In this document: positions 17,838-58,724 of the stretch, piece after piece
Numbering within the stretch: the first letter of the stretch is position 1
How the letters are laid out: each line of letters begins with the position of its first letter
Assembly (NCBI GenBank): GCA_028821605.1
Contig: JAPPFM010000058.1
Location: 62,280 to 126,279 of the forward strand
Length of the DNA stretch: 64,000 nt
Direction: 5' to 3'
From: Candidatus Poribacteria bacterium
Lineage (GTDB): Bacteria > Poribacteria > WGA-4E > WGA-3G
Notes under the pieces: generated by a model
What the model saw: only the letters and a program-made list of their open reading frames with translations
Told to the model about the DNA's origin: nothing
The model's database searches: none
Made by a program: the position numbers and the translations under genes

Positions 17838-18938
17838 TTACGTAAAAAGTTCGGGAGAATTAACTAGAATCGCATCAAATCGCCTTTCTGGACTTAGCAA
17901 TTTTTCTCCCTGTCCCAAGATGATGTTTTTGATTTGGGTTTTTCTAATCCTTGGCCGTAAAAGTTCTGCACAAGACATATAAGGATGAGTCTTTCTTCCA
18001 CTCAATGCAAAGGCTTTATCTGTTTGTCTCGTAAATCCGACACTAACGGTCTGCGGGTCAATTTTTCCATCTGTAGCAAAATCAGATAGCATCTTCACAA
18101 TCCATAAAACTGCTCGCTTCGCTCGTGAAAATTCTCTGGCACGTCCTTGTTCAACTGTATCTAAAAGCAGTTTCGTAAAAGCAAATGTACTCCAAACGAA
18201 AACATCTAAGCAGTTCTCATGAAGTCGAGAGGATTTCCCAATAGTTTTCCAAATAGGTTGTATAACTAATGGAGTCTGATCGTCTATTTTCGCAAGTAAC
18301 AGAGTTTTGATAGTTTGGGTAATATGGGGTATTTTCTCTAGCATGCTATCTTCTGATTCCCAGTCAAAGTTATTCTGAAAAATAGGGCTTAGACTGCCTA
18401 AAAGTTCGGTCCGATGTTCGGCGTACTGACTAACAATCTCAAGTGTTAAATGGATAATCGTATTGGGACGCACCACAAGTTCACACCCGTACTCTTCTTC
18501 AGAAAAACCACAGGTTGAATTATCAGGCAAAGCTGTCAATTTAATTTCCAATGCCCGTAGCCAAGGACTTTCAGAATTAGAATTATCCATTACCACTAAA
18601 TCAATACGAGGTAAAGTCCCTTTAACAAATTGCTGATTTTGTCCATAAGTATACTCGAAGGCAAAGTAAATATCTTCAGAGTCATACGCATGCCCAAATA
18701 CAGAATTCACATCAATTTTCTCAGGAATGACATTCCAATTCCCATCTAAAGCCAAGTAAACAGGAGCGATCTTTTGACTTTGCATATAACATAATAAGGC
18801 AATAGGGAAACAGTTATTAAAGCTGTTCTTTCCCCATGCTTTAGCTTGGCTGAAGTCCTTGTTTGTGTTAGATTGATTTAACCCAAATAAGGCAGGCGCA
18901 CTATCCATTGATGTGAATCCTATTGAACTGACCATCAT
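17838..18938 (-). CDS. HindVP-type type II restriction endonuclease
   Basis: A 366-residue protein resembling the HindVP restriction endonuclease family. Visible hallmarks are the N-terminal ALFGLNQSNTNKDFSQAKAWG segment with NSFNNCFPIALLCYM, a PD-(D/E)xK-like core with D113 (LPRIDLVVMD) and E131-x-K133 (RALEIKL), and the C-terminal FDAILVNSPELF. The gene lies just ahead of a C5 methyltransferase, the expected partner. Base composition is lower in G+C than the flanking GH32 genes, as is usual for mobile RM systems. Two adjacent ATG codons give the start at 18938. No control (C) protein gene is seen. Confidence 0.82.
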   Translation of the reverse strand: MMVSSIGFTSMDSAPALFGLNQSNTNKDFSQAKAWGKNSFNNCFPIALLCYMQSQKIAPVYLALDGNWNVIPEKIDVNSVFGHAYDSEDIYFAFEYTYGQNQQFVKGTLPRIDLVVMDNSNSESPWLRALEIKLTALPDNSTCGFSEEEYGCELVVRPNTIIHLTLEIVSQYAEHRTELLGSLSPIFQNNFDWESEDSMLEKIPHITQTIKTLLLAKIDDQTPLVIQPIWKTIGKSSRLHENCLDVFVWSTFAFTKLLLDTVEQGRAREFSRAKRAVLWIVKMLSDFATDGKIDPQTVSVGFTRQTDKAFALSGRKTHPYMSCAELLRPRIRKTQIKNIILGQGEKLLSPERRFDAILVNSPELFT

Positions 18939-35815: not shown

Positions 35816-37195
35816 TTAGAGAATCCCTTGTTCTTGTAGTTTCGCCAGCAATTCTACTTGTGTCCCTGTGCCTTTGGTTGAGTTACATGCACCACACAGC
35901 AACTGCAAGTTATCAAGAGCGTCAGTGCCGCCGTGCTTACGGGGTATGATATGGTCAACAGTCATGTTGCGAAACGGAAACTGTGTTTGGCAGCCATTAC
36001 ACAAACCTTCCTGTTTACCATATAACGCATGCTTATGTGTTTGATAATTCGGCAGTTTTTCACTGCGTTTCGGGATATCAGTGCGATGGATGACAGCACC
36101 CAAAAGCCCGACCTCCTTCTCCAAGCGCATCCGCACCAAGTCAACCGCCTTTTTTGAAATATCAATGCCGATCCACTGCCTCCCAAGTCGCTCTGCTGCA
36201 ACACATGTTGTCGCACACCCACAGAACGGATCAAGGACAACATCTGTTTCGTTGCTGCTCGCCTTGATGATACGTTCAAGCAAAGCAAGAGGCTTCTGGG
36301 TAGGGTAGCCAGTGCGTTCCTCTTTTGCAGGCGGGAGCACGTCGTCCCAGATATTACCGTAAGACGCACCTTTATAGTCTTTGAGGTATTTCCGCCGCTC
36401 CAGTTTGCCATCAGCCCGAATAACGATATTTCCTTTTTCATACTCCTCTTCCAAACGTTCTTTGCTCAACCGCCACCCGGAAGGATGCGGATTTACAAAC
36501 CCGCGCCATTCATAGCATAAGTTCGGCCGCGCGCCCATATTTGGAGAACTCCAAATGTGGGCGGAGTCGTTGTAATACCGTTGTCCATTCTCATCAATAT
36601 GTTTAAATTTCTTTAAGATTTCAGTTTCTGTTAGTTCTCTTTCTGGGCGTAATGCTGTTGATGACGATGCCACATAATACAAGAGTATATCAGCATTGTT
36701 GCCCCACCGTGTGCTACGATGCTGCGACCCTTTTTGCGTAGATGTTGCGCGTCTCCATGTGATCTCAGACCTGAAGTTGTTTTTTCCGAAGATGCTATCC
36801 ATTATTACCTTCAAATAGTGGCTGGCAGTTGGATCACAATGTAGATAGAGACTGCCGGACTTTTTCAAGACGCGTTTCATCTCCAATAAACGCACTGCCA
36901 TCATAATCAGATAAGACTTCATGCTTTTCCCGTGCGTCAACTCGGCAGCGTGTATCGTTTGGTAAAGCGGAGGTTCGCGCTCTGCAATTTCACCGTGCCA
37001 TGCATTATCTACATCTGAGAGTGTCCACGTGTCTTTAAAGGCGGCACCTGCCGCTTGGCTCCCGATAGGTGCGGCGTATGTCCGATTGGAATTGAAGGGC
37101 GGGTCCAGATAGATCAAATCTATTGACTCGCTGTCCATACCGCGCAGCACAAATAAATTGTCATTCTCAAATATCGTTCGGTTTTTAATGTTCAT
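35816..37195 (-). CDS. DNA methyltransferase fused to HNH endonuclease
   Basis: A 459-residue fusion. Residues 1-370 are an amino-methyltransferase with catalytic DPPF (31-34 in IYLDPPFNSNRTY) and the AdoMet motif DPFCGCATT (322-330) in beta order. DPPF suggests N6-adenine (or N4-cytosine) modification. Residues 385-445 are an HNH nuclease: zinc-type cysteines C399, C402, C434 and C437 frame DHIIPRKHGG (D414, H415) and DNLQLLC with the final N438. One chain could therefore modify and cut DNA. No separate specificity subunit is present. It lies 82 bp downstream of an AT-rich gene for a membrane-anchored protein, with which it may form a defence unit. Confidence 0.9.
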   Translation of the reverse strand: MNIKNRTIFENDNLFVLRGMDSESIDLIYLDPPFNSNRTYAAPIGSQAAGAAFKDTWTLSDVDNAWHGEIAEREPPLYQTIHAAELTHGKSMKSYLIMMAVRLLEMKRVLKKSGSLYLHCDPTASHYLKVIMDSIFGKNNFRSEITWRRATSTQKGSQHRSTRWGNNADILLYYVASSSTALRPERELTETEILKKFKHIDENGQRYYNDSAHIWSSPNMGARPNLCYEWRGFVNPHPSGWRLSKERLEEEYEKGNIVIRADGKLERRKYLKDYKGASYGNIWDDVLPPAKEERTGYPTQKPLALLERIIKASSNETDVVLDPFCGCATTCVAAERLGRQWIGIDISKKAVDLVRMRLEKEVGLLGAVIHRTDIPKRSEKLPNYQTHKHALYGKQEGLCNGCQTQFPFRNMTVDHIIPRKHGGTDALDNLQLLCGACNSTKGTGTQVELLAKLQEQGIL

Positions 37196-52084: not shown

Positions 52085-52912
52085 CTATACCCCTTTCGCC
52101 TGCTCTAACAATTCTGCTAACCGATCAGCAAAGCGGAGTTGGCTGTCGTCCTCTGGCGCATAACCTATTACTTTTCGGGCGTTGGCGATGCTCCAAAACT
52201 TATGTGAGTTGTCGCTGATGCCGTAGAAAATCTGGAACGGAATCCCGTTTTCGTCGTCTATGTTTTCCGTCTCAATGCTCTTGACGAAAAGTTGCACCTG
52301 ATCTCGGACGCTCAAATACGCGCCGAGTCCTCGGTGCATCGCCTTCAAATCGTCTGCTGAAGAATTCGCCATATCTGTCTCGCGCGGTCCACCGATACGC
52401 AATTGGACATTCTGAAGTTTCTTACCCTCAACATGTCCAGTGGCGAACACAAAGCCGAGGTGCTCATACGCCTCTTTTGCCCACCCGTAGAAGTTATCGG
52501 AGAGCGGACGCATTTCCGGTGTCACCACATCCCACTTATCTGCCCAGATAAGACGTTCGTAATAGTCGGCGGCGTGGTTGGAACTACAAACGACAACACG
52601 ACGGACATCGGTTTCAACGCAGGTTTGGTAGAGATTGTATGCCATTTGAACGTTGGCAAGCTCGTTCTCAAAACTGCCGCCCTTAAAGGCACAATGAACG
52701 ACTGCGTCAATGCCTTCAAAATGGTGACGGTATGCGTCTCGGTCGGGATCCGTGAGCTCGGCAATCTGAACCCCTTCGACTTCCTCTCCGTGTCGATTTG
52801 TGGCTTTCACATCCAGCAGTCCGAGTTCGTAACGTTGGCGAAATTCTGGGAGCATCCGCCCGGCGATATAGCCTGATGCCCCGGTGATAAGGACTTTTCT
52901 GCGGTTTTTCAT
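52085..52912 (-). CDS. NAD-dependent epimerase/dehydratase
   Basis: A 275-residue short-chain dehydrogenase of the extended type. The N-terminus KVLITGASGYIAGRM binds NAD, VVVCSSNHAADYY takes the place of the catalytic Ser motif, and Tyr-x-x-x-Lys is represented by Y-G-W-A-K (FYGWAKEAYEHLG). The family includes uronate dehydrogenases and sugar epimerases; this protein is most like uronate dehydrogenase-type members by its SSNH and YGWAK motifs. The start ATG overlaps the stop of the DUF4435 gene by four bases (ATGA), so it is translationally coupled to a defence-like gene, an unusual pairing. Confidence 0.85.
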   Translation of the reverse strand: MKNRRKVLITGASGYIAGRMLPEFRQRYELGLLDVKATNRHGEEVEGVQIAELTDPDRDAYRHHFEGIDAVVHCAFKGGSFENELANVQMAYNLYQTCVETDVRRVVVCSSNHAADYYERLIWADKWDVVTPEMRPLSDNFYGWAKEAYEHLGFVFATGHVEGKKLQNVQLRIGGPRETDMANSSADDLKAMHRGLGAYLSVRDQVQLFVKSIETENIDDENGIPFQIFYGISDNSHKFWSIANARKVIGYAPEDDSQLRFADRLAELLEQAKGV

Positions 52913-53697
52913 TGGGTAAGCCTCTGTTTTTGATCGGATAATTTTCTCTCTACCTCGTGTATTAATCTATTGAATAATTGACTTGAAACCGGTCTATCTA
53001 ACGCGATTGCAAATAGTCCATGGTGCGTCGTTTGAAACCTCAATTCACGATCAGCGGCATTTAGGAAGCGGAGCAATGTTTGGAAAAGCAGTTTGCCACG
53101 AAGTTGTAAACCATAAGCTTCCCTTATCTGTTGATAGCGTTCCTCTTGAGGAGGCAGAAATCCTCGACGTTTGAGAAATGCATCATCCAATTCAGTTTTG
53201 CCCCGCGGAACGATTTCGTCAAGTCCCTCCGCAACATAAGCTGCATCACCCTTTAGAAACGCTTCAACCTCAAAGGCAAACCATCTGCAAACAGCATTTA
53301 GGATTTGCTGATGAGTCTCATGCTGATGTGTTTCAAGGAAACTTTCAAGTTCAGCACTGACATACAAATCATTTTCAATACTATAGCCTTGTGTCCAAAT
53401 AACATCGGCATAGTCTTCAGGAATACCTGAGAACAACCACATGTCGCGGTCGGCGATAAAAGCGACAGGGACATGCCTGAAGTCCCCCAAACTTTCATAT
53501 TGAGAAAGTTCCTCATAAAGACGAAGTAGCGTATTTTTAGAACTCGCACTGAAAAAACCTACATCAAATCTTCCTAAACGCTCCACCAATGTCCTATAGA
53601 TGATTTCATCATCTTTACCTTCAACAATAATGTTTGACTTGTTAGAAAGACGTAGAGCAGTAACTAAATTCTCCACAGTAGGGGCGGGCAGTGACAT
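52909..53697 (-). CDS. DUF4435 TOPRIM-like protein (AriB-like, PARIS)
   Basis: A 262-residue DUF4435 protein. The TOPRIM-like acidic residues are seen as E26 in IIVEGKDDE and D83-x-D85 in FIADRDMW, followed by the family's GYSIEND segment (E108, N109). In PARIS (phage anti-restriction-induced system), AriB is such a TOPRIM nuclease, held by the ATPase AriA and released when a phage anti-restriction protein is sensed; it then cuts tRNA. Here the gene follows an ATPase gene by 24 bp, in the AriA-AriB order. DUF4435 also occurs in other ATPase-linked systems, so PARIS is a strong but unproven call. Its stop overlaps the start of an epimerase gene. Confidence 0.78.
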   Translation of the reverse strand: MSLPAPTVENLVTALRLSNKSNIIVEGKDDEIIYRTLVERLGRFDVGFFSASSKNTLLRLYEELSQYESLGDFRHVPVAFIADRDMWLFSGIPEDYADVIWTQGYSIENDLYVSAELESFLETHQHETHQQILNAVCRWFAFEVEAFLKGDAAYVAEGLDEIVPRGKTELDDAFLKRRGFLPPQEERYQQIREAYGLQLRGKLLFQTLLRFLNAADRELRFQTTHHGLFAIALDRPVSSQLFNRLIHEVERKLSDQKQRLTQ

Positions 53698-53721
53698 TCA
53701 GGTATCTTTTCCTTTATCTGT

Positions 53722-54882
53722 TTAATTACTTTTCAGTGGAATCTCTTTATGCTGATACCCAGAAAAGATGAAAGGTGAGTGCGTTGCAATGAAAAACTGA
53801 TTCCCAGTGCTTTGATCGAGGAGTGTTGGTAGAAGTAGTCTTTGCCAATCAATGTGCAGGCTTAACTCCGGTTCATCAATGAAGATAGGCATATTATTAT
53901 GAAAAGCGTTGTAAGAAAGAAAACTCAGCATCTGCTTTTCACCAGAAGAGAGTTTGTCAGAGGAAATAGCATCTTTTGCTTTTCCAACAGTAATTCCATC
54001 GTCTTCTTCTCCCAAAGTAATCCCGTCAATAGTTTCCCCACGAACAACCCGCCCAGTAACATGTATCGCTTCATATCGTAGAATCTTCCGAGATAACTCA
54101 GACAACACAGAAAACGGCTTACTCAATTGTTCCCGTTCCTTATTGACTTTCTGGATAGCGTCCAGAAGGGCGGAAGCATCTTGAGGAATCTCAGCAACTT
54201 TGTCCTTATCTGGATTGTTTTGTATCTTTTTTGAAATCTCTTCTAATACCTGTGCCTGGCGTGTGGTGATTTCCTCATAAATATCAGCGTATTTCCGCGT
54301 GAGTAGTTCACGAAGATCCTCTGTTGAGATCGAAGCAATGAACTTGTGTTCGTTGATTGACACCTCATCGGAAAATCTCAACATTGAATCTTGAAGCATT
54401 TCTGGCGCGGAAGCGCGAAATCTTATCACTGAATCGTCAGTGCCCGTTGCAACTCGCGAAAAACTACCCTCAATTCTTCTAAAGGTTGGAAAGAATAGAC
54501 TTTGCTTGGTCGTTCGCGCGATCCGTTTTTCAAGTGCATTTACCCAACCCACATCCTTCCGGGCGATCCTTCCGGTCTCCGCATCAATGACAATAAATTC
54601 ATACGTGCCTTCTTCTTCACCGAACCTGTAATCAAGTGTAACTTGGTCGGGTTTAACTCGTTCCATGCCCACAGCGAACAGTTCTGTTTGAATTGCAATG
54701 GAATGAAACGGAATTTCAGTAAGGATTTGCTCAAGGTGTCCACTGATGAGATACCACAGCAGTTTAAGGATCGTCGTCTTGCCTGAGCCGTTAGGTCCAG
54801 TAAAAATGTTTAAGTCCTCATTGAACTCAAATTCATTACCAAGCCGCTTATTGAGCCCCTTAACCTTAAGATATCGTATCAT
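53722..54882 (-). CDS. ABC/SMC-type AAA ATPase (AriA-like, PARIS)
   Basis: A 386-residue ATPase of the AAA_15/AAA_21 group. Walker A is GPNGSGKTT (29-37), the signature motif is LSSGEKQML, Walker B is FIDEPELSLH, and the switch His is in IATHSPFIF. The middle (about 150-270) is a helical insert with a coiled-coil-like part (ITTRQAQVLEEISKKIQ). There is no fused TOPRIM domain; instead a separate DUF4435 gene follows. This layout matches AriA of PARIS, though the protein is somewhat shorter than the E. coli version. The ATG at 54882 follows GTGAGG. An unrecognised 560-residue protein is encoded 44 bp upstream. Confidence 0.8.
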   Translation of the reverse strand: MIRYLKVKGLNKRLGNEFEFNEDLNIFTGPNGSGKTTILKLLWYLISGHLEQILTEIPFHSIAIQTELFAVGMERVKPDQVTLDYRFGEEEGTYEFIVIDAETGRIARKDVGWVNALEKRIARTTKQSLFFPTFRRIEGSFSRVATGTDDSVIRFRASAPEMLQDSMLRFSDEVSINEHKFIASISTEDLRELLTRKYADIYEEITTRQAQVLEEISKKIQNNPDKDKVAEIPQDASALLDAIQKVNKEREQLSKPFSVLSELSRKILRYEAIHVTGRVVRGETIDGITLGEEDDGITVGKAKDAISSDKLSSGEKQMLSFLSYNAFHNNMPIFIDEPELSLHIDWQRLLLPTLLDQSTGNQFFIATHSPFIFSGYQHKEIPLKSN

Positions 54883-54926
54883 CTGTTTACCTCACAGAGA
54901 TAGTTCCCAACGTAAAATCTGAATGC

Positions 54927-56609
54927 CTATGGAATCTCCAGCTTTTCCCTACAGTACCGCGCAAGCGTTTTTATTTCTGTGAGGACCTGTGCCTCGGTTT
55001 GGATCAACTGACTGAAGAGCGGCGATACAGGTTGTCTACTGAAAAGTCTGTCAAAGAAACCCTGTTGGACATAAGCCGGTACCCCAAAACGTGAAACCCC
55101 AACACGAATAGGATCTACACCGAGGTATTCAATTGAGAGATAATGCGCGACATCCTCTTTCGTAATCTTGCTCTCATGGATGCTGCCTGTATTTCTTCGT
55201 CCGTAACTCACCATATAGACCCTACCACTCATCTGGTTGAGGACAGTATAGCCACCCATATCAATTGCTTCATTCCAACATTTCTCAAATCCGTTTGTCG
55301 GGAGACGTTCGCGGAGCTCCTCAGCAGAACGGACGACAAACTTGTTTTGGTGCGGCGTTTTGATAATAAGAAACCCATCATCTCTCTCCTCTAAAGCGGA
55401 TTGTCCTATAGATAGGTCTACAGAATCTAAAGTCCAGACAATCCCATCTCGGATGCCCTTCGCCATGTTATGATGTCTCTCAACAAATTCACCATTCAGC
55501 GGATGGAGGCGATAAGCACCGCCGCCGTTAAATGTCTGGCGCAATTTCCTGCGGTGTTCTATGACAGAAAACCGTTTTTGAGAAACAGATATTTCAAGTC
55601 GGAGTGTATATCCAGTGTGTAAATCGGTTGTCAGATTCAGCTGAGATTGGCGAAGTTCAGCCAAACGTGTCAAGGCAGTCTGGCTTTTGGATAAGACGCG
55701 CCCAATTAGGTACTCGCGGCGAAGTCTTGGGATCTCCGTTGCGAGACGATCAAGCGTTGGAGCATCTAACTGCTCCAGCATAATCTTGTGTTCCCATCGT
55801 GTCCCGCGTTCATGCATCAAAATTTGGAACTGCTGCGTATCACCAGCAGCAGTTCGGATATATCCGAGTGCCGTCCAGGGGTCGAATGTTGCCCGGTAAT
55901 TCCCGCTGGTCTCCTCGTCCCCATTCGCCAAGATGCAATCTCGTCGTTCATATCGAGAATATAGCCCGAATTGAAACTCAAAATCCTCGTAGGGTGCCAA
56001 AGCCTCCCGCAAATCGCGTGCGAATTCACTTCCTTTTGCAAATCGCTTGAAAATTTGCTCGGTGCGTTTCGGCTGATTTAGGGCATCAAGAAACGTTCCA
56101 ATACGGATGCCGCCCTCCTCAATTCCTTCGTCTTCGCTTTTTCCAAAAACCTTAGTCTTGGTTTTGAAAGGCGGATTTCGGAGCGACACATCGCGCTGTG
56201 AGACGAGGTGCAACGCTGGATCATTCGTTACGTCCTTGAGTGCAGGCGCGTCACCGAGGATCTCCGCGAGTTTGACATCGTCAATCTTTTCCGTCAAGTC
56301 AACACCCCGTTTTAGTTCAGCAAAGTGGATGATGTCGTCAAGGCTGTACCGGATCGGTGCGCTTGAAGAGAGATTATCGTAGTTAGAGCGGTGGAAGCGG
56401 ATGCGCGGCTTGATACGAAAGACAGGTGTGAGGCCGTAATCCTTTAGTAATACATACAGCGTGACGGTATAGGAATCCGCGTGAACCTTTTGTGCAAGGA
56501 TTCCTTCCCGCTTTGCGTTGCTTTCCACGATTAATTGATCTTGGACGAGACGACTATCGTTGCCGAAAATCATCATCCGATGTTCTTCCCTATTATCATC
56601 TACTAACAT
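54927..56609 (-). CDS. Unrecognised 560-residue protein upstream of the PARIS-like pair
   Basis: A 560-residue soluble protein without signal peptide. I do not recognise its family. One stretch (FGLYSRYERRDCIL, RATFDPWTALGY, HERGTRWEHKIMLEQLDA; about 235-310) has the alternating Arg, Lys and Glu pattern of VTC/CYTH triphosphate-tunnel enzymes, but only faintly. The rest is mixed alpha/beta, with an Arg-rich helical part (about 310-345). GGAGG is eight bases before the ATG at 56609. It is the first gene of a tight run with the ATPase and DUF4435 genes (44 and 24 bp gaps), so it may be a third component or a passenger. It also neighbours ROK and CHAD genes, but with its own site. Confidence 0.65.
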   Translation of the reverse strand: MLVDDNREEHRMMIFGNDSRLVQDQLIVESNAKREGILAQKVHADSYTVTLYVLLKDYGLTPVFRIKPRIRFHRSNYDNLSSSAPIRYSLDDIIHFAELKRGVDLTEKIDDVKLAEILGDAPALKDVTNDPALHLVSQRDVSLRNPPFKTKTKVFGKSEDEGIEEGGIRIGTFLDALNQPKRTEQIFKRFAKGSEFARDLREALAPYEDFEFQFGLYSRYERRDCILANGDEETSGNYRATFDPWTALGYIRTAAGDTQQFQILMHERGTRWEHKIMLEQLDAPTLDRLATEIPRLRREYLIGRVLSKSQTALTRLAELRQSQLNLTTDLHTGYTLRLEISVSQKRFSVIEHRRKLRQTFNGGGAYRLHPLNGEFVERHHNMAKGIRDGIVWTLDSVDLSIGQSALEERDDGFLIIKTPHQNKFVVRSAEELRERLPTNGFEKCWNEAIDMGGYTVLNQMSGRVYMVSYGRRNTGSIHESKITKEDVAHYLSIEYLGVDPIRVGVSRFGVPAYVQQGFFDRLFSRQPVSPLFSQLIQTEAQVLTEIKTLARYCREKLEIP

Positions 56610-56659: not shown

Positions 56660-57634
56660 CTATCCGGTTTGGGACCGCTGTCGTGCCAGTGCTGCGGCTC
56701 CAAGGATACCGGAATTGTCCCCCAGTTTTGCCGGTACAATCTGGACCCCATTCAGCGTGTTAGGCAGTGCATATTTTTCCGCAGCTGCGCGGATATCGTC
56801 CAAAAACGTATCGTCCAGTGCTTCAACGACACCACCGCCGAGTATAATCATCTCTGGATTCAAGAAATTTACAATAGAACCAATACCGATGCCGAGGTAT
56901 TTTGTTGCTTTTTTGATAACTTTCAAGGTTAATTTATCATTTGCGCGAATCGCCTTTGCCAACACCCCACTCCGAATCGCCCGTAAGTCACCACCAGTGA
57001 GTTCGGAGATCACGCTTTTTTTTCCCTGTTTTAGAATCGCTTTCTGAAACTGTTTTGCCATTGCAGTGCGGCTCGCAAGTGCCTCTAAGCAGCCACGAGT
57101 ACCGCATCCACACCGCGGTCCCCCTGCTTTGACAATGATATGCCCGATTTCGCCAGCTGTTTTACTTGCGCCATGGAAAAGTTCGCCCTGCAAGATAATT
57201 CCGCCACCAATGCCAGTCCCTACAAAAATCCCGACGACGTTCTGAAAACCTTTCCCTGCCCCGAATACGTGTTCACCGAGCGTGCCAACGTTCACATCAT
57301 TGTCAACGAATGTCGGAATATTGACGCGCGCTTCTAATTCCTCCTTGAGTCGGACATCCTTCCAACGGAGGTTGGGTGCGAAAATAACAACGCCTGTGGC
57401 TGGGTCAAGTGGTCCCGGCGCACCAATTCCGACAGCCTGAATTGAGGCCGCGGCAACGCCTGACTTATCAACAGCCCTTTGGATAGATTCCGCGATCCGA
57501 TCAATTACAATGGATGGACCTTTATCTGCTTTGGTTGGGACTTTGGCGGTACTTAAGATATTCCCTTCTGAATCAATGACCGCCGATAGAATCTTAGTGC
57601 CACCCATATCTACACCGATAACATTCGTGCTCAT
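56660..57634 (-). CDS. ROK-family sugar kinase (glucokinase-like)
   Basis: A 324-residue ROK protein, most like bacterial glucokinases. The phosphate motif is GVDMGGTKILSAV at the N-terminus, the sugar site includes FVDNDVNVGTLGE, the catalytic region is GIFVGTGIGGGII, and the zinc motif is CGCGTRGCLEA preceded by GEIGHIIV. The start is the ATG at 57634 with GGGGAG nine bases ahead; a longer frame to 57673 has no site. It is downstream of two CHAD half genes. Some ROK kinases use polyphosphate, and CHAD binds polyphosphate, but no feature here proves that choice over ATP. Confidence 0.88.
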   Translation of the reverse strand: MSTNVIGVDMGGTKILSAVIDSEGNILSTAKVPTKADKGPSIVIDRIAESIQRAVDKSGVAAASIQAVGIGAPGPLDPATGVVIFAPNLRWKDVRLKEELEARVNIPTFVDNDVNVGTLGEHVFGAGKGFQNVVGIFVGTGIGGGIILQGELFHGASKTAGEIGHIIVKAGGPRCGCGTRGCLEALASRTAMAKQFQKAILKQGKKSVISELTGGDLRAIRSGVLAKAIRANDKLTLKVIKKATKYLGIGIGSIVNFLNPEMIILGGGVVEALDDTFLDDIRAAAEKYALPNTLNGVQIVPAKLGDNSGILGAAALARQRSQTG

Positions 57635-57688
57635 TATAGTAGTCTCCCCTATGCGCACCTGCCACGAACGCACTTTAACAATTAGTCG

Positions 57689-58186
57689 TTATGATGCCAA
57701 GAATGACAGCAACTTTTGTTTGAAATTCATCATGGACAGTTGTTCCCATTTTTCTAAAAATATTTTGTAATCTGCTTCACGGGCTTCCTTCGTCCGATCA
57801 ATAAGCGTAGCAACACCTTGTGCCGAAGTTTCACATCCCGACTGGTATGCATAATCGGTTAAGACTTCCAAAACGACATCAGAATCGTGAATATCACCGA
57901 GGATCTCTTGCAAATCAACGATCAGTCTAAGAAGTTCGTTGTAAGTTGCTGAAACCTCTTTAGCATACGTCTTCGGTAACCGATAAGCAGCACGAAAAAT
58001 TTCCATCGTATACCGGAGGCGTTTAATCGAAATCCGCATGTTGTGGAGTTCTTCGCGCCGCGCTTCATCGCGGATGAACGGTTCCCACGTGTAGACCTCC
58101 TCTACCTTTTGTGGGAGAATGACGCGTGCATTCTCGTGATAACTCTGCTTCGGCACAACACCGATGACTTTGTGCACTTTTGCCAT
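57689..58186 (-). CDS. CHAD-domain protein, C-terminal half type
   Basis: A 165-residue helical protein corresponding to the second half of a CHAD domain. The HNMRISIKRLRYTMEIF motif (conserved His, Arg, Lys) and LQEILGDIHDSDVVLEVL match the C-terminal repeat of typical CHAD proteins. CHAD binds inorganic polyphosphate through its basic helices. The upstream gene (58260-58724) supplies the N-terminal half type, 73 bp away, so the pair would make one full domain by assembly. No CYTH domain is attached. The downstream ROK kinase begins 54 bp after this stop. Confidence 0.82.
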   Translation of the reverse strand: MAKVHKVIGVVPKQSYHENARVILPQKVEEVYTWEPFIRDEARREELHNMRISIKRLRYTMEIFRAAYRLPKTYAKEVSATYNELLRLIVDLQEILGDIHDSDVVLEVLTDYAYQSGCETSAQGVATLIDRTKEAREADYKIFLEKWEQLSMMNFKQKLLSFLAS

Positions 58187-58259: not shown

Positions 58260-58724
58260 TTACATAAAGAATTCCAAAAACTTGGTTTCAAAATCGGTTT
58301 CTTCCAGTTTGGCAAAGAGCATCAGCATTGGTTTCCGAGCATCCTCCCGTTCCTGCTGTAAATGTTCGATTAATCCTCGAATGTCCGCCTGTTCCGCTTC
58401 AGTCAGAGTAACCAATTCTTGCTGAAAACGGGCGATAAGAACATCTAAATCGCGCACAGCTCCCATCGTCTGAGTTATCGCTTTTACCTTTTTGTAGTAT
58501 TTCTTGAAAGGTTTTTCTGGAAAGCAGTCCACGAAATTGTCCATGGCAGCGCGCAAGCGACGCGATGTAACGCGCATTTCGTGGACAAACTCAATATCCG
58601 TTCCCTCCTTGGCACCCTCCTTGTAAGACATCATCTTTTGAAAATAACTCACAATCACCTGCCGAGCCCAAGCTTCCAATGTATTGTCAGGCGAGATCTT
58701 TTCGATTTCCAAGGCTGTCGTCAT
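58260..58724 (-). CDS. CHAD-domain protein, N-terminal half type
   Basis: A 154-residue helical protein corresponding to the first half of a CHAD domain. The motif FVHEMRVTSRRLRAAMDNF and the GAVRDLDVLIARF helix are those of the N-terminal CHAD repeat. It stops where a full-length CHAD protein would continue into the second repeat, which is encoded separately just downstream. The two stop codons and separate starts are clear, and the gap between them is 73 bp, so this is not a single frameshift. The product is likely cytoplasmic and polyphosphate-binding. Confidence 0.82.
   Translation of the reverse strand: MTTALEIEKISPDNTLEAWARQVIVSYFQKMMSYKEGAKEGTDIEFVHEMRVTSRRLRAAMDNFVDCFPEKPFKKYYKKVKAITQTMGAVRDLDVLIARFQQELVTLTEAEQADIRGLIEHLQQEREDARKPMLMLFAKLEETDFETKFLEFFM

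What the first reader, a model, noticed from the sequence alone, without database searches (positions are those of the whole stretch)
52909..56609. PARIS-like ATPase/TOPRIM pair with an unrecognised 560-residue gene at its head, inside a metabolic operon
Seen: an ABC-type ATPase (53722-54882) and a DUF4435 TOPRIM-like protein (52909-53697) in AriA-AriB order. They are preceded after 44 bp by a 560-residue unknown and followed by an epimerase gene sharing the ATGA overlap. Known: PARIS senses phage anti-restriction proteins and, through AriB, blocks translation by tRNA cleavage. Restriction-modification genes are present in the same window, the setting in which PARIS would be useful. The third gene is not part of described PARIS systems.
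Basis: partly seen in the sequence, partly recalled or inferred. Interest (0 to 1): 0.6.

Follow-up and report, generated by a model that had tools for sequence, protein, structure and literature searches.

The report
PARIS defence pair beside core gene
A two-gene phage-defence cassette of the known PARIS type sits in a fixed chromosomal slot in sponge-symbiont bacteria (Poribacteria) and comes, goes and swaps its toxin gene there, while the unknown gene in front of it is an ordinary core gene of these bacteria, probably for polyphosphate metabolism, and not a third defence component.

Summary
The window is from a Candidatus Poribacteria genome. In detail: AriA (53722-54882) and AriB (52909-53697) are adjacent, follow a 560-residue gene after 44 bp and overlap the next gene (ATGA). 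The pair passes the published PARIS detection rule, its nearest solved structures are E. coli AriA and AriB, and catalytic residues (AriA Walker A/B, signature, H-loop; AriB E26, D83, D85, GYSxEN) are conserved across about 30 alleles. The 560-residue gene is a single-copy gene in 71 of 85 phylum genomes, is present in at least 37 without an adjacent pair, and other AriA-AriB pairs lack it. Its C-terminal half has a predicted triphosphate-tunnel fold (best match E. coli ygiF, Z 10.7), and its neighbours are CHAD, CYTH or histidine-phosphatase genes, so it is probably a polyphosphate/triphosphate enzyme. The slot between it and the epimerase holds either a short spacer or AriA/AriB-type genes, nothing else. 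Presence changes at least 12 times in one bacterial family, fossils remain, and AriA and AriB alleles reassort. Defence itself was not tested. New member of a known kind. A side lead of more interest: the gene never co-occurs with polyphosphate kinase PPK1.

The parts
52909..53697 (-). AriB-like DUF4435/TOPRIM protein, 262 aa, predicted nuclease effector; E26, D83, D85 and GYSIEN motif
   Evidence: DUF4435 33.8 bits; PADLOC AriB 1.1e-11; profile's only PDB hits are E. coli AriB 8ux9/8v46, E26 aligned on E26; residues invariant in 27 alleles
53722..54882 (-). AriA-like ABC ATPase, 386 aa, predicted sensor
   Evidence: AAA_21 78.5 and AAA_15 74.4 bits; PADLOC AriA 8e-26; best PDB hit E. coli AriA 8ux9
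54883..54926 (-). 44-bp spacer between the core gene and AriA; a similar leader precedes AriA in other alleles, and AriA starts 46-53 bp from the matched end of the core gene in most
54927..56609 (-). 560-aa core gene (U560), passenger beside the pair; predicted triphosphate-tunnel protein, possibly with two tunnel domains
   Evidence: 71 of 85 phylum genomes; fold match; neighbours
54930..55619 (-). U560 residues 331-560: predicted triphosphate tunnel (TTM) fold
   Evidence: AlphaFold2 model, VIA-align best 5a60 ygiF Z 10.7, rmsd 3.0, 155 aligned
55620..56609 (-). U560 residues 1-330: most conserved half; possible VTC-like second tunnel domain (weak)
   Evidence: low-confidence model; VTC4 3g3q Z 5.3 and VTC complex 7ytj Z 5.5 among the top rows
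52085..52912 (-). epimerase-like / Azf-like NAD-binding protein; right border of the slot
56660..57673 (-). ROK-family glucokinase, conserved neighbour on the other side
   Evidence: TIGR00744 269.6 bits, above cut-off; conserved next to U560 in family f1
57689..58186 (-). CHAD-domain protein 1
   Evidence: PF05235 6.8e-17
58260..58724 (-). CHAD-like protein 2 (paralogue of CHAD 1 by tblastn cross-hits; not itself scanned)
   Evidence: about 22% cross-matches between the two in relatives

Best explanation
The pair is a two-gene PARIS-family anti-phage system (AriA sensor ATPase, AriB TOPRIM nuclease) that occupies a fixed, polymorphic slot between a core gene (U560) and an NAD-binding-protein gene in one family of Poribacteria. 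By analogy with E. coli PARIS, AriA would hold AriB inactive until a phage anti-restriction protein binds, and the released AriB would then cut host tRNA and stop translation; this step is inferred. The slot alternates between empty and occupied alleles, most simply by homologous recombination in the conserved flanking genes together with deletion, and AriB types are exchanged under related AriA types. U560 is not part of the system. It is a core protein with a triphosphate-tunnel fold, probably of polyphosphate or triphosphate metabolism.
For: Published PARIS rule (AAA_15 >= 32 or AAA_21 >= 27, plus DUF4435 >= 27; PMC9122126) is met: 74.4, 78.5, 33.8. E. coli AriA is the best PDB hit of AriA (1e-17 single sequence, 1.6e-28 profile), ahead of PtuA and GajA; the AriB profile hits only E. 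coli AriB, with E26 on E26. Motifs are conserved in 34 AriA and 27 AriB sequences, dN/dS 0.14-0.33. In family f1, 30 of 58 U560 genomes carry AriA/AriB sequence in the slot, AriA usually 46-53 bp from U560; where both borders are seen, the rest have a 31-474 bp spacer. L033 and L034 are 96% identical across the locus and differ by the pair. A 401-bp fossil in L031/L139 keeps both ends of AriA. At least 12 state changes on the U560 tree. G076, the nearest genome: AriA 84%, AriB 48%; window AriB groups with L052, L066, L078 (0.999) while its AriA groups with L038, L039. U560 occurs without the pair and pairs occur without U560.
Against: No trigger, defence activity or tRNA cleavage is shown. AriA is shorter than E. 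coli AriA (386 against 464 aa) and identity to E. coli PARIS is low; the AriB profile match is modest (E 0.0033). Strict adjacency to U560 in family f1 could hide a functional link. Some slot alleles are decayed, so the system is not always active. Genomes are metagenome bins and may mix strains (G053 shows both slot states).
Confidence: 0.83

Rival explanations
1. Three-gene system: U560 is an accessory or guarded protein of this PARIS clade, for example a host factor whose loss or binding by phage triggers AriA, which would explain why the pair is nearly always placed right behind it.
For: In family f1 nearly all alleles of this subfamily sit directly behind U560 at a near-constant distance; nothing but AriA/AriB-type genes was seen in the slot.
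Against: U560 is kept without the pair in 24 f1 genomes and 13 genomes of other families, at normal conservation. A same-subfamily pair in G020 (L124) lies on another contig, with no U560 near; other DUF4435-ATPase pairs (L125, L126, L128, Lichenicola plasmid) have no U560. AriA and AriB alleles reassort while U560 follows the species.
Confidence: 0.05
2. The pair belongs to another ATPase-TOPRIM defence kind (Septu/retron PtuA, Gabija GajA, OLD) rather than PARIS.
For: AriA also matches PtuA and GajA profiles and structures.
Against: AriA profiles and E. coli AriA score best; the partner is DUF4435/AriB, and the AriB profile's only PDB hits are E. coli AriB. All 18 AriB-like members scanned match PADLOC AriB.
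Confidence: 0.07
3. The pair has been kept by vertical descent since the family ancestor and merely lost repeatedly, without exchange between lineages.
For: AriA and U560 distances correlate (Mantel r 0.48); fossils and AriB-decayed copies show loss.
Against: AriA and AriB trees disagree with each other; AriB-U560 correlation is weak (r 0.21); pairs of genomes at 93-96% U560 identity have AriB at 48-58%.
Confidence: 0.15

Closest known systems
PARIS (AriA-AriB) of E. coli B185 / P4 satellites
   Same: ATPase plus DUF4435/TOPRIM protein as adjacent genes in AriA-AriB order; catalytic motifs; AriB E26 in the same position; best sequence match in the PDB.
   Different: AriA is shorter (386 against 464 aa); low overall identity; lies in a chromosomal slot between metabolic genes, whereas the described hotspots are in prophages and satellites (PMC9122126); effector alleles reassort in place.
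Septu/retron PtuA and Gabija GajA ATPases
   Same: Same ABC-ATPase superfamily, ATPase-TOPRIM logic in GajA.
   Different: Lower scores than AriA; different partner genes.
Triphosphate tunnel metalloenzymes (ygiF, SaTTM, VTC4), for U560
   Same: Predicted fold of residues 331-560 matches ygiF Z 10.7, SaTTM Z 10.0; CHAD genes nearby, CYTH gene next door in G007 and G008.
   Different: No CYTH or VTC profile match by sequence; about twice the length; N-terminal half without a confident fold.

Membership tests
PARIS | ATPase scoring at least 32 (AAA_15) or 27 (AAA_21) | tested here: met
   74.4 and 78.5 bits (thresholds from PMC9122126)
PARIS | Adjacent DUF4435 protein scoring at least 27 | tested here: met
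   33.8 bits, 24 bp downstream of AriA
PARIS | AriA ATPase motifs intact (Walker A, signature, Walker B, H-loop) | tested here: met
   G29-x-N31-G32..K35-T36, L311-S312-x-G314-E315, D336-E337, H368 conserved in at least 94% of 34 alleles
PARIS | AriB TOPRIM catalytic glutamate (E26 in E. coli) and acidic pair | tested here: met
   E26, D83, D85 conserved in all 27 sequences listed; E26 aligns on E. coli E26; E. coli has D-R-E where the window has D-R-D
PARIS | Nearest solved relatives are AriA and AriB | tested here: met
   8ux9, 8v45, 8v46
PARIS | Activation by phage anti-restriction proteins (Ocr, Ptr) | not testable with these tools
   needs an infection or co-expression assay
PARIS | tRNA cleavage by released AriB dimer | not testable with these tools
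   needs biochemistry
Three-gene PARIS variant with U560 | U560 found mainly with AriA-AriB pairs and pairs mainly with U560 | tested here: not met
   30 of 71 U560 genomes have AriA/AriB sequence behind U560 (including decayed copies); pairs without U560 in L124-L126, L128, L187
Triphosphate tunnel metalloenzyme (U560) | Tunnel fold | tested here: met
   residues 331-560 of the AlphaFold2 model; ygiF Z 10.7, most of the top 50 rows tunnel-fold proteins; prediction only
CYTH family (U560) | Match to Pfam CYTH profile | tested here: not met
   no Pfam hit for U560 or its members at E <= 1 other than unrelated weak ones
VTC polyphosphate polymerase (U560 N-half) | VTC tunnel domain with basic tunnel residues | tested here: inconclusive
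   VTC4 Z 5.3 over 184 residues on a low-confidence model; hhalign not significant, and a CYTH-VTC control of true relatives also failed

The most novel reading that the evidence does not exclude
U560 is an unrecognised, two-tunnel polyphosphate-making or polyphosphate-handling enzyme that replaces PPK1 in most Poribacteria. Its C-terminal half has the triphosphate-tunnel fold, its N-terminal half weakly resembles VTC4, CHAD, CYTH or histidine-phosphatase genes lie near it, and no genome searched has both U560 and PPK1.
Probability: 0.25. Interest if true: 0.65.

Novelty: new member of a known kind. Interest (0 to 1): 0.4.

Why it matters
It shows a PARIS family living in a stable chromosomal address of uncultured sponge symbionts, with presence/absence alleles and effector exchange at one site. 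That makes the sensor-effector compatibility of PARIS testable by natural chimeras. It also removes a false third gene from the PARIS picture and gives a fold and a pathway lead to an unannotated core protein of Poribacteria.

Tried and rejected
U560 as third component: rejected on distribution. U560 in plasmids: no match; viral contigs: pattern hits but no relative. AriB in phage records: no match at 1e-3. AriB single sequence against the PDB: none at E <= 0.1, only the profile finds E. coli AriB. Sequence-profile comparison of U560 halves with CYTH, with VTC and with each other: not significant, and the positive control failed, so uninformative. U560 N-half fold: mean pLDDT 44.7, Foldseek nothing below E 2.5, only the second aligner puts VTC near the top. 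I could not sample U560 outside the phylum beyond one genome-contig scan with close-relative patterns, which returned only Poribacteria.

Full report
Observation. The window is contig C58 of a 6.0-Mb genome. Its closest named relatives, including a 95% and a 93% match to the 560-aa protein, are Candidatus Poribacteria metagenome assemblies, many of them from sponges (the sponge link is general knowledge of the phylum).

The pair. The ATPase and the DUF4435 protein exceed the score thresholds with which PARIS was defined. PADLOC AriA (8e-26) and AriB (1.1e-11) are their best defence matches. Among solved structures E. coli AriA is first for AriA, ahead of PtuA and GajA, and an AriB profile finds only E. 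coli AriB, placing window E26 on the catalytic E26 (E26A is inactive in PMC12409363). Across 34 AriA and 27 AriB sequences the catalytic motifs are conserved, and dN/dS is 0.14-0.33 in twelve comparisons. The pair is therefore a PARIS-family member at the level of sequence. Trigger and substrate were not tested.

The third gene. It is present once in 71 of 85 Poribacteria genomes, with identity that follows kinship: 82-96% in the genus, 73-76% in the family, 53-58% beyond. It is present without an adjacent pair in 24 genomes of family f1 where the state could be read and in all 13 genomes of other families. AriA-AriB pairs elsewhere in the phylum (L124, L125, L126, L128) and on a Lichenicola plasmid have no such gene beside them.

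What the third gene is. No profile library knows it. The predicted structure of residues 331-560 matches triphosphate tunnel enzymes: ygiF Z 10.7 (rmsd 3.0, 155 aligned), the mimivirus RNA triphosphatase 10.5, SaTTM 10.0, with most of the top 50 rows of this fold class; the rest of the model is low confidence. The first 330 residues modelled alone stay uncertain (mean pLDDT 44.7), yet the aligner lists VTC polyphosphate polymerase structures at Z 5.3-5.5 over 184-198 residues. By eye the blocks RIKPRIRF, FAELK, YSRYERRDC, YRATFD and RWEHK follow the order of tunnel motifs in VTC proteins found in G025, G026 and G012; that is a lead, not a test. Two CHAD-type genes lie next to the ROK kinase gene in the window; CHAD is a polyphosphate-binding module, and stand-alone CHAD genes are often in polyphosphate operons (PMC6537752). 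In G007 and G008 the gene directly upstream is CYTH; in L119 a histidine phosphatase gene precedes it.

The slot. In family f1 the space between U560 and the epimerase-like gene holds either a short spacer (31-474 bp) or AriA/AriB-type genes, sometimes in tandem (L066, L078/L144), and I saw nothing else there. AriA starts 46-53 bp from the end of the U560 match in most genomes. Two 96%-identical loci, L033 and L034, differ by the pair. G068 (L031/L139) retains a 401-bp fossil with both ends of AriA. In G038, G049, G058 and G060 AriA is full length but AriB is fragmentary or broken, while G035 has a broken AriA and a shortened AriB; this bias is what a costly effector would produce, but the numbers are small. 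On the U560 tree the occupied/empty state needs at least 12 changes among 54 genomes.

Reassortment. AriA and AriB distances are only partly correlated (Mantel r 0.55), AriB and U560 hardly (0.21). The window and G076 share 96% of U560 and 84% of AriA but 48% of AriB. The window AriB groups with L052, L066 and L078 with support 0.999, while its AriA groups with L038 and L039, which carry a different AriB type. I infer exchange between alleles at the same address, by homologous recombination in conserved flanks and between AriA genes; the mechanism is not shown.

Side lead. PPK1 occurs in five of 83 genomes and in none of the 69 with U560; Fisher p = 7e-5 without correction for kinship, and within family f7 the pattern is four against two. 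PPK2 is present in 23 of 25 genomes tested. U560 as a replacement polyphosphate enzyme is therefore worth a bench test, but it rests on a predicted fold, neighbours and a confounded distribution.

Verdict. An ordinary member of a known defence family in an unusual, well-documented chromosomal slot; the proposed third gene is not part of it.

Noticed in passing
window 54927-56609 and genomes G006, G009-G012: PPK1 and the 560-aa gene never occur in the same Poribacteria genome (PPK1 in 0 of 69 genomes with the gene, 5 of 14 without), suggesting replacement of one by the other; not corrected for kinship.
   Followed up: partly
L126:4838-7014 and L128:3644-5760: A second DUF4435-ATPase pair in two genomes (G036, G038) sits at one shared address beside a carboxyltransferase-domain gene and a topoisomerase-like gene, so fixed addresses for such pairs may be common in this phylum.
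   Followed up: partly
L035:2713-7096, L171:3676-9376, L183:7251-9157, L135, L138: The space between the epimerase-like gene and Ldh2 is also variable, with inserts of 2-6 kb carrying sigma-factor-like, ATPase-like or secreted-protein-like ORFs.
   Followed up: no
L007 and L123 (genome G053): One metagenome bin shows both an empty slot and a contig with AriB next to the epimerase gene: strain mixture or duplication.
   Followed up: no
window 17838-18938: HindVP-type restriction endonuclease (3.8e-128) next to a GH32 gene.
   Followed up: no
window 35816-37195: N6/N4 DNA methylase domain followed by an HNH endonuclease domain in one protein.
   Followed up: no
L130:7542-11821 (genome G034): Slot with two diverged AriA-like ORFs, an AriB-like ORF and a 754-aa ORF that contains two AriB-like stretches.
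   Followed up: no
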